Shown here piece after piece: positions 126 through 1,868 of a DNA stretch of 34,116 bases (positions are counted from its first letter, which is position 1; each line of letters starts with the position of its first letter). This stretch comes from Solirubrobacterales bacterium (GTDB lineage: Bacteria; Actinomycetota; Thermoleophilia; Solirubrobacterales; JACPNS01). The position numbers and the translations under genes are program-made. The stretch is from NCBI GenBank assembly GCA_016185345.1, contig JACPNS010000005.1, forward strand, positions 1 to 34,116. Direction: 5' to 3'. The notes beneath the pieces were generated by a model. It had not been told where the DNA came from. It did not search any database and worked only from the letters and a program-made list of their open reading frames with translations.

Positions 126-141
126 CCGACACATCACACAA

Positions 142-223
142 TGCCCGGGGTGGGACTTGAACCCACATGTCCTAAGACAGCCGATTTTAAGTCAGCCGCG
201 TATACCAATTCCGCCACCCAGGC
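142..223 (-). tRNA. tRNA-Leu (anticodon UAA)
   Basis: Read on the minus strand, the sequence starts GCCTGGGTGGCGGAATTGG, has a D arm with GGTATACGCG, an anticodon loop CTTAAAA (anticodon TAA), a class II extra arm, and a T arm with GGGTTCAAGTCCC. The 7-bp acceptor stem GCCTGGG/CCCGGGC closes with one T-G pair, and the discriminator is A. CCA is not encoded. Length is 82 nt. Confidence 0.93.
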
Positions 224-353
224 AGGCTGAAGGCAAGTTACCGCTCAGACACCGCGAATAGCATTGTTAATCGCAAGTTTGGCGTAGTGTGAGATCCGAT
301 GGTTAACACCGAAACTCTGTTACTTCCTTGGGGTTTCTGTCGATAGTAAGTAC

Positions 354-1868
354 ATGGAAGCATCCGTACTAAGAGAATCCAGTTCAACTTCTGCCGCGCT
401 GCTGCAAGACCCGCGCGCGCGTTTCCTTCGTCTGCAATCAGACGAGAGGCTGGTCTCGCTGACCCGCCGTGGCAACGAGGCAGCCTTCGAGACTTTGATC
501 GACCGGTACCGTACGAGGCTTCTCGCCTTCTCGCGTCACATGGTCGGATCCGCTGAAGACGCCGAGGACATCCTCCAGGAAGTCTTCGTCTCGGCTTATC
601 GCGCAATGCTCGCCGACGATCGCGAACTGAACGTTCGCCCGTGGCTGTACCGCATCGCCCGCAATCGTTCTTTGAACCACCTTCGTCGCCCGCGCCCGAC
701 CGGCGTGGACTCGATGGACGTCTTCGAGGGTGGCGCAGCAGTCGCCACCGCAGACCGCGTCCACGACAAGCTCGACCTCGAGGACTTGATGCAGGACGTC
801 AAGAAGCTTCCCGAGACCCAGCGCACGGCATTGATGCTGCGCGAGATGGGTGACCTCTCTTACGACCAGATCGCCGAGACGATGGACACATCGATCCCGA
901 GCGTGAAGTCACTGCTGGTTCGCGCCCGCGTCTCGCTCGCCGAGGCCGCAGAGTCGCGTCGCCTTTCATGCGACGAAGTCCGTATGGAGCTCGGCGCAGT
1001 CGCCGAGGGCCTCCAGAAGATCTCATCGCCGGCGCGTCGCCACGTCAGCGACTGCGAGCGCTGCCGCTCGTTCAAGAAGGAACTTTCAACGACCAACCGC
1101 AAGCTCACGATGCTCGCCCCGATCGGTGCCTTCGCCGCCTTCAAGGCGATCGTCGGCCTGAAGATCTTCAGCGGCGCCAGCGCAGCAGGATCCAGCGCAG
1201 TCGGCGGATCGGCAGTTGCGGGCACGAGCGCGGTCGCCGGAGTCGGAGCAACTGCAGCAGCCACTGGCGCAGCAGGTGCTGGCTCAAGCGCAGCTGTCGC
1301 CGGACTCGGCGCAGTCGCAGCGAAGGTCGGAACCGGCCTTGTCGCAGCGGCAATCGTCACCGGTGGAGTCGCCCAGGTCGCCCGCCACGACGTCAGCACT
1401 TCAAAGGTCGATCAGAAGGCATCCATCGCCAAGACCGCGCCAGCAATCGCAGGCCCGGCCGCAACTGGCGGAGCAACCCCGGGGGTCGCAGCAGTCGCCC
1501 CGGTCGAAGAGAAGAAGGTCGTGGGCCCGACTGGCGCAACCGGATCGGCCGGATCGACGGCGCCGGCCACCGAGGTACCTGTCGCCGTCGATCCTGAGAA
1601 GGAAAGCAACGCGGTCAAGCCCGTCGTCGAGAAGGACGAAACCACAGTTTCACTCGGTCAGCAGGACGGCGTCGCCGCGCCCGCAGGCTCCAGCGAGTCA
1701 CCCGGTCTCCCGACCGGTGGGCAGCCGACAGCTCCTACCCAACCGAGCACGCCGTCGGTAGGCACCGACGGCCCGAGCGGCCTGTCGGGCAGCACGAGCT
1801 CGACACCTGCGGCTGGCGATTCAGGCAGCACCGCTGACTCCGGCGGCGCCGCCGGCCCAACCGAGTAG
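354..1868 (+). CDS. ECF-like sigma-70 factor fused to a ZAS-type zinc finger and low-complexity tail
   Basis: This 504-aa protein begins with an ECF-type sigma factor. Region 2 covers about residues 27-112, with the DAEDILQEVF helix and the WLYRIARN segment. Region 4 covers about 141-198, with a helix-turn-helix around LSYDQIAETMDTSIPSVKSL. After it comes a zinc-binding anti-sigma-like motif: Cys206, then His230-x3-Cys234-x2-Cys237. Residues 250-350 are Ala/Gly-rich and hydrophobic enough to include one or two membrane passes. Residues 350-504 are Pro/Ser/Thr/Gly-rich. Ordinary ECF sigmas are about 180-200 aa, so more than half of the protein is extension. The natural reading is a sigma factor carrying its own redox- or zinc-responsive inhibitory module, possibly membrane-tethered. 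No clear Shine-Dalgarno precedes the ATG. GATAGTAAGT just upstream could be a -10, making it leaderless. No separate anti-sigma gene lies next to it. Confidence 0.85.
   Translation: MEASVLRESSSTSAALLQDPRARFLRLQSDERLVSLTRRGNEAAFETLIDRYRTRLLAFSRHMVGSAEDAEDILQEVFVSAYRAMLADDRELNVRPWLYRIARNRSLNHLRRPRPTGVDSMDVFEGGAAVATADRVHDKLDLEDLMQDVKKLPETQRTALMLREMGDLSYDQIAETMDTSIPSVKSLLVRARVSLAEAAESRRLSCDEVRMELGAVAEGLQKISSPARRHVSDCERCRSFKKELSTTNRKLTMLAPIGAFAAFKAIVGLKIFSGASAAGSSAVGGSAVAGTSAVAGVGATAAATGAAGAGSSAAVAGLGAVAAKVGTGLVAAAIVTGGVAQVARHDVSTSKVDQKASIAKTAPAIAGPAATGGATPGVAAVAPVEEKKVVGPTGATGSAGSTAPATEVPVAVDPEKESNAVKPVVEKDETTVSLGQQDGVAAPAGSSESPGLPTGGQPTAPTQPSTPSVGTDGPSGLSGSTSSTPAAGDSGSTADSGGAAGPTE

What the first reader, a model, noticed from the sequence alone, without database searches (positions are those of the whole stretch)
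354..1868. Sigma factor with built-in anti-sigma zinc finger and membrane-like tail
The ECF domain is followed by a ZAS-type C-x23-H-x3-C-x2-C motif, an Ala/Gly-rich hydrophobic segment and a 150-residue low-complexity tail in one polypeptide. This would put a redox or zinc switch in cis and may tether the sigma factor to the membrane.
Basis: partly seen in the sequence, partly recalled or inferred. Interest (0 to 1): 0.5.

Follow-up and report, generated by a model that had tools for sequence, protein, structure and literature searches.

The report
Sigma factor carrying its own anti-sigma
One bacterial protein joins a gene-switching sigma factor to the zinc-finger brake that normally sits in a separate protein, plus a probable membrane anchor and a long disordered tail; the design is conserved across an order of actinobacteria and is a new member of a kind already described in other actinobacteria.

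Summary
ORF 354-1868 (504 aa) is an ECF sigma factor (Pfam sigma2, sigma4) followed by an exact C206-x23-H230-x3-C234-x2-C237 finger, two marginally hydrophobic stretches around an Ala/Gly linker, and a 159-residue tail. A strong match (E<1e-80) occurs in 87 of 101 genomes of the order (Solirubrobacterales by record titles). The finger is kept in 30 of 30 and, in a second partly overlapping set, 80 of 80 parsed copies. It is profile-related to stand-alone zinc anti-sigma domains (hhalign 95.6%, shuffled controls about 1% or less), though most of that signal is the four ligands. dN/dS shows finger, second hydrophobic segment and tail translated and constrained. New details: a short motif recurring in the tail; an ECF-type promoter recurring in front of the gene, implying autoregulation; fusion to a sigma factor in 11 of 21 zf-HC2 cases in this order, against 0 of 28 and 1 of 18 elsewhere in the phylum. 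Likely mechanism: a self-inhibited, membrane-anchored sigma factor released by regulated proteolysis, as proposed for ECF48/52/53; zinc probably structural. Membrane insertion, topology, proteolysis and signal are inferred.

The parts
141..224 (-). tRNA-Leu (TAA anticodon), divergent neighbour; synteny marker, not part of the mechanism
   Evidence: ARAGORN. In 44 of 52 named loci tested a tRNA-Leu(TAA) lies within about 600 bp upstream of the ortholog, 36 of them divergent; 4 more have it farther off, 4 have none (distances read by eye)
311..337 (+). ECF-type promoter-like element: gAAACtc (AAC 313-315), 17 bases, GTT 333-335
   Evidence: Ortholog upstream regions: AAC-N17-GTC in 28 of 82 against a mean of 2.5 in dinucleotide shuffles; AACT-N14-GTGTC in 22 of 82 against 0.1. 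The window has the variant GTT, so it is not itself among these 28
354..1868 (+). whole gene, 504 aa plus stop
   Evidence: open in the parsed orthologs with median length 515 aa (61 complete ORFs, 4 under 450)
495..689 (+). sigma region 2 (residues 48-112)
   Evidence: PF04542 E 8.4e-16
798..935 (+). sigma region 4 (residues 149-194)
   Evidence: PF08281 E 1.2e-13
969..1064 (+). zinc anti-sigma-like motif C206-x23-H230-x3-C234-x2-C237
   Evidence: invariant ligands 65 of 65; hhalign to 43 stand-alone anti-sigma domains 95.6%; weak zf-HC2 in 39 of 65 and NCBIfam antisigmaE in 50 of 65 members
1104..1169 (+). hydrophobic segment 1 (residues 251-272), end of a long predicted helix 235-275; conserved P256, K264
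1170..1316 (+). Ala/Gly-rich linker (residues 273-321)
   Evidence: low model confidence
1317..1388 (+). hydrophobic segment 2 (residues 322-345), probable membrane anchor, begins with invariant K324
   Evidence: K324 invariant in 50 of 50; dN 0 against L013, dN/dS 0.10-0.12 against L014-L016
1389..1865 (+). disordered A/G/S/T/P-rich tail (residues 346-504)
   Evidence: composition; dN/dS 0.33-0.44 against four congeners
1626..1655 (+). short tail motif VEKDETTVSL (residues 425-434); family pattern about [VTI]-[QED]-x-[ED]-x-x-[ST]-T-x-L, often followed by P
   Evidence: EM on 50 tails: log-likelihood 353 against 117-131 in 8 shuffled sets

Best explanation
It is a one-protein sigma/anti-sigma switch. 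The N-terminal ECF sigma factor is held inactive by a class I, zinc-binding anti-sigma domain fused to its C-terminus; the fusion is held at the membrane by a C-terminal hydrophobic segment, with the Pro/Ala/Thr tail most likely outside the cell. An envelope signal leads to cleavage (a site-1 cut in the tail, then an intramembrane M50 protease, then cytoplasmic degradation of the finger), which frees the sigma domain. The free sigma factor transcribes its own gene from an AAC-N17-GT(C/T) promoter and an unknown set of targets. Shown by sequence: domain order, finger and its conservation, translated and constrained tail, recurrent promoter, recurrent tail motif. Inferred: zinc binding, inhibition in cis, membrane insertion and topology, proteolysis, autoregulation, signal.
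For: Sigma domains. Motif kept in 30 of 30 and 80 of 80 (76 of 76 parsed plus 4 of 4) copies. hhalign of the finger region (65 rows) to 43 stand-alone anti-sigma domains: 95.6%, E 1.1e-8, 55 columns; six column-shuffled controls 0.08-1.0%, sigma-domain control 0.15%. Finger constrained as strongly as the sigma domain against the nearest ortholog. VIA-align top row for the finger model is RslA, M. tuberculosis zinc anti-sigma (Z 4.3, rmsd 4.5, 61 aligned), also RseA 3.6 and ChrR 2.6. Segment 2 conserved and same-architecture relatives in class and phylum carry clearer hydrophobic segments at that place (e.g. L007 2.32, L155 2.0, L159 2.21). Promoter; of 26 strict sites in 101 genomes 10 lie 14-84 nt before the ortholog. 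Own genome has two M50-type proteases. No anti-sigma gene recognised beside the gene in the window's first 6 kb or in the two loci read (L043, L056). Same mechanism is proposed in print for ECF48/52/53 (PMC8999054, passages); truncation data for SCO4117 (PMC5826349, passages).
Against: Masking the four ligands drops the profile match to 1.6% (same 55 columns), so homology rests mainly on the motif. Window protein alone has no Pfam finger hit at E 1. Foldseek found no anti-sigma chain among its 16 listed matches for the finger model, and unrelated chains score Z 4.0 and 3.7. The sigma-plus-finger model has pTM 0.40 and its matches to sigma factors have rmsd 12-20 A over both domains, so a sigma2-finger-sigma4 sandwich is neither shown nor excluded. 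Hydrophobic segments are marginal. M50 proteases ring in all 14 control genomes too, so their presence proves little. The strict promoter pattern gave 11 matches when read backwards as a control, so most sites outside the gene may be chance.
Confidence: 0.6

Rival explanations
1. A soluble or only peripherally bound redox/zinc switch: oxidation or zinc loss at the finger opens the sigma factor in cis; the Ala/Gly segment and tail are cytoplasmic linker and disorder.
For: Exact C-x23-H-x3-C-x2-C with all four ligands invariant. Hydrophobic segments are marginal. Soluble zinc anti-sigma factors often sense redox state (PMC7406223, passages).
Against: Segment 2 is the most conserved part after the finger. 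Three tandem paralogs keep hydrophobic segments and tails without the motif. About half of membrane-bound class I anti-sigma factors carry the motif, so it does not imply redox sensing (PMC7406223).
Confidence: 0.22
2. The fused domain no longer inhibits: the protein is constitutively active, and finger and tail only stabilise it or place it at the membrane.
For: No direct evidence of inhibition here; the structural model does not show the packing.
Against: Finger as constrained as the sigma domain and ligands invariant, which a decaying domain would not be.
Confidence: 0.1
3. The finger acts in trans on other sigma factors of the same genome, such as the finger-less tandem paralogs.
For: The genome has finger-less paralogs of similar sigma domains and no zf-HC2 protein at E 0.001.
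Against: Fusion and strict co-conservation point to action in cis; paralogs are at another place in the genome.
Confidence: 0.06

Closest known systems
ECF52 (SCO4117 of Streptomyces coelicolor)
   Same: Order of parts: ECF sigma domain, zinc finger, transmembrane region, long low-complexity extension; proposed release by proteolysis and positive autoregulation (PMC8999054 and PMC5826349, passages)
   Different: ECF52 has a proline-rich extension ending in a carbohydrate-binding domain; no such domain found here.
ECF48 and ECF53 (Actinobacteria)
   Same: Described as C-terminal fusions with a zinc finger (likely ZAS) and one or two transmembrane helices, extensions up to 400 residues (PMC8999054, passages)
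IutY (ECF243) of Pseudomonas putida
   Same: Sigma and membrane anti-sigma factor in one polypeptide, activated by regulated proteolysis (PMC8999054, passages)
   Different: Iron-starvation cell-surface signalling system; no zinc finger of this kind described in the passages read
Stand-alone zinc class I anti-sigma domains (RslA, RsrA, ChrR, RsiW)
   Same: C/H-x(n)-H-x3-C-x2-C motif and helical pattern
   Different: Here on the same chain as the sigma factor

Membership tests
ECF sigma factor | sigma-70 regions 2 and 4 only, joined by a short linker | tested here: met
   PF04542 and PF08281 over cut-off; TIGR02937 75.2 bits over its cut-off of 42.9
Class I zinc anti-sigma domain (ZAS / zf-HC2) | H-x3-C-x2-C with an upstream Cys/His ligand | tested here: met
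Class I zinc anti-sigma domain (ZAS / zf-HC2) | profile similarity beyond the ligands | tested here: inconclusive
   95.6% with ligands, 1.6% with the four masked; sub-threshold zf-HC2 in 39 of 65 and antisigmaE in 50 of 65
Class I zinc anti-sigma domain (ZAS / zf-HC2) | fold and sandwich between sigma2 and sigma4 | tested here: inconclusive
   RslA top by VIA-align at Z 4.3 but unrelated chains at 4.0; none in Foldseek; domain packing not resolved
Class I zinc anti-sigma domain (ZAS / zf-HC2) | binds zinc and inhibits the sigma factor | not testable with these tools
   needs protein work
ECF52 | carbohydrate-binding domain at the end of the extension | tested here: not met
   no Pfam match beyond the sigma regions
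ECF52 | sigma, zinc finger and transmembrane region on one chain | tested here: inconclusive
   sigma and finger met; transmembrane segment marginal
ECF48 / ECF53 | match to the group's own sequence model | not testable with these tools
   the classification papers tried are not held
ECF41 / ECF42 (SnoaL or other fused sensor domains) | SnoaL-like or other annotated C-terminal domain | tested here: not met
   no such Pfam match in the window protein nor among families matched by the 28 members

The most novel reading that the evidence does not exclude
In this order the two-gene sigma/anti-sigma unit has largely been replaced by one-protein switches. The window's family is the order's conserved, autoregulated core copy, and its tail motif ([VTI]-[QED]-x-[ED]-x-x-[ST]-T-x-L-P) is the extracytoplasmic recognition or site-1 cleavage element through which the envelope signal is read: a direct outside-to-RNA-polymerase one-component pathway with a linear-motif sensor instead of a sensor domain.
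Probability: 0.25. Interest if true: 0.65.

Novelty: new member of a known kind. Interest (0 to 1): 0.42.

Why it matters
A sigma factor, its inhibitor and its anchor on one chain would be about the shortest route from envelope to promoter. Only a few groups of this kind are described, and only SCO4117 has been studied to any depth according to the review passages read (PMC8999054). The family offers a conserved, order-wide case with its own promoter as read-out, an invariant finger and a defined short tail motif, so inhibition in cis, release by proteolysis and the role of zinc could each be tested by single changes in a heterologous host. The finger-less tandem paralogs give a natural comparison for what the finger adds.

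Tried and rejected
Considered and dropped: a frameshift or stop read-through joining two genes (the frame is open and similarly long in most parsed orthologs; 4 of 61 complete ORFs are under 450 aa). A neighbouring partner gene: clusters of flanking ORFs exist (48 and 47 of 81 loci for the two commonest), but they were not annotated beyond the ORF lists of L043 and L056, so a conserved partner is not excluded. A regulon by promoter pattern: 16 of 26 strict sites are not before an ortholog and the backward control gave 11, so no target is claimed. PDB sequence search with the finger profile: only two chance-level matches. Simple regular expressions for the tail motif were weak (19 of 61 against a shuffle mean of 5.0, maximum 13; 6 of 61 against a mean of 1.6, maximum 6); the EM motif is much stronger, but the real set had 40 starts and the shuffled sets 25, and the tails are related by descent, so it shows conservation rather than independent recurrence. 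Literature: seven searches listed no paper whose title or abstract start describes such a fusion in Solirubrobacterales or Thermoleophilia; one search found no paper with all its three terms; subscription journals and the main classification papers are not in the library.

Controls against the reading are in the Against line. The order-against-phylum comparison of fusions is limited: the order sample is 23 hits from 13 genomes (2 not assessable), the phylum samples are 30 strongest hits (2 not assessable) and 20 consecutive weaker rows (the script printed 1 of 20; 2 of those rows picked a wrong ORF, hence 1 of 18); genomes are related, and the window's own family is not detected by PF13490 and so not counted.

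Full report
What is there. ORF 354-1868 encodes 504 aa. Pfam finds sigma regions 2 and 4 and nothing else over cut-off except the overlapping Sigma70_r4. After sigma4 come C206-x23-H230-x3-C234-x2-C237, a hydrophobic stretch (251-272), an Ala/Gly linker (273-321), a second hydrophobic stretch (322-345) and a 159-residue tail without Cys or aromatic residues.

Conservation. The window is contig C5:1-34116 of an unnamed 2.43 Mb genome. A search of 101 genomes of the order (own included) gave a match at E<1e-80 in 87; the other 14 include incomplete assemblies and two with only fragments of high identity. Not all 87 were read in full: 30 loci (the window's and 29 others) were parsed and all have the motif, one with x24. 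The named-genome scan found 247 relatives and kept 80: Solirubrobacter, Conexibacter, Patulibacter, Svornostia and many MAGs titled Solirubrobacterales or Thermoleophilaceae, plus two oddly labelled bins. The motif is in 76 of 76 parsed ORFs (67 with x23, 9 with x24) and in the 4 that the script missed. In 296 genomes drawn from the phylum (at most 5 candidates scored in each), matches at E<1e-160 occur in 8 of 9 genomes of the order and the best outside it is 2.3e-51, in the same class. A quick tree of 68 sigma domains puts the 14 sampled orthologs plus one ungrouped ortholog (L101) on one branch (SH-aLRT 100); 9 of 10 other zinc-finger fusions of the order fall with the own-genome paralog L008 on another (support 92).

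Finger. The four ligands are invariant in 65 of 65 aligned rows. A profile of this region aligns with 43 stand-alone anti-sigma domains from other actinobacteria at 95.6% (E 1.1e-8, 55 columns); six shuffled controls reach 0.08-1.0% and the sigma set 0.15%; masking the four ligands leaves the same 55 columns but 1.6%. Single-sequence hits are sub-threshold: zf-HC2 in 39 of 65, NCBIfam antisigmaE in 50 of 65. A model of residues 195-280 (mean pLDDT 76, pTM 0.52) has RslA as best of 54 compared chains (Z 4.3), RseA and ChrR lower, with unrelated chains in between; Foldseek itself listed no anti-sigma chain. The 352-residue model (pTM 0.40) makes residues 235-275 one long helix and leaves 274-352 below pLDDT 50.

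Membrane segment and tail. Both hydrophobic maxima are marginal. In 65 orthologs with both regions readable, 51 reach 1.6 in the first and 30 in the second. Yet the second segment starts with a lysine invariant in 50 of 50 and shows no nonsynonymous change against L013 and dN/dS about 0.10-0.12 against three other congeners; the tail is at 0.33-0.44. So the tail is translated and constrained, mainly in composition: P 20%, A 19%, T 15% over 61 complete ORFs, 4 Cys and 43 aromatics in 10,733 residues. Within it a 10-residue motif recurs about 70-125 residues after the segment (window 425-434): EM log-likelihood 353 in 50 tails against 117-131 in 8 shuffled sets; 46 of 50 best sites score 9 or more, scored on the training set.

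Promoter. Of 82 upstream regions (80 nt shown, 130 nt tested), 28 hold AAC-N17-GTC against 2.5 expected and 22 hold AACT-N14-GTGTC against 0.1; neighbouring spacings 14-16 and 18 give 0 or 1; smaller excesses occur at 13 (8 against 2.4) and 19 (5 against 2.7). The regions are related by descent. The window has AAC-N17-GTT at 313-335. A strict pattern finds 26 sites in 101 genomes (backward control 11), 10 of them 14-84 nt before an ortholog. This is the form of an ECF promoter (recalled knowledge) and makes autoregulation likely.

Setting. tRNA-Leu(TAA) lies within about 600 bp upstream in 44 of 52 loci tested, which marks an old, vertically kept locus. No anti-sigma gene was recognised next to it in the window's first 6 kb or in L043 and L056. 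Own genome: two M50 proteases, as in the control genomes.

Fusion as a habit of the order. In 13 genomes of the order 11 of 21 assessable zf-HC2 hits share an ORF with a sigma domain. In the rest of the phylum it is 0 of 28 among the strongest hits and 1 of 18 among 20 consecutive weaker rows of matched score, where 18 of the 19 unfused rows have a separate sigma ORF in the fetched stretch. Sampling limits are told under Tried and rejected.

Mechanism and standing. The anatomy matches the published description of ECF48/52/53 (PMC8999054, passages read), where release by proteolysis is proposed; for SCO4117 a truncated form and autoregulation are reported (PMC5826349, passages). A survey of class I anti-sigma domains finds the zinc motif in about half of membrane-bound ones and suggests a structural role (PMC7406223, passages). 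I therefore read the finger as the brake and the tail/membrane part as the sensor side, with zinc probably structural. ECF52's carbohydrate-binding domain is absent; ECF48/53 membership could not be tested. Verdict: a real, deeply conserved new member of a known kind, with three details (tail motif, recurrent own promoter, frequency of fusion in the order) that I did not find in the literature searched.

Noticed in passing
L009 3285-4541, 6864-8207, 8294-9643 (own genome C3): Three ECF sigma genes close together on one strand, each with hydrophobic segments and a long low-complexity tail but no H-x3-C-x2-C motif; they look like finger-less relatives of the window protein.
   Followed up: partly
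L008 (own genome C22:81882-82868) and L218, L220, L223, L224, L227, L229, L238: A second, separate lineage of sigma-zinc finger-hydrophobic segment fusions in the order, with a divergent sigma domain.
   Followed up: partly
L007 (own genome C4:14978-16159): A 494-aa ECF sigma with a clear hydrophobic segment (score 2.32) and tail, no finger.
   Followed up: no
   Followed up: partly
L084 and L111: Records titled Bifidobacterium breve and Chlamydiae carry typical orthologs; probably mislabelled bins.
   Followed up: no
window 141-224 and loci: The tRNA-Leu(TAA) gene keeps its place beside this sigma gene across most of the order.
   Followed up: yes
L213 and L214: Two of the strict promoter sites lie 99 and 66 nt before long frames that begin like secreted proteins; may be chance.
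   Followed up: no
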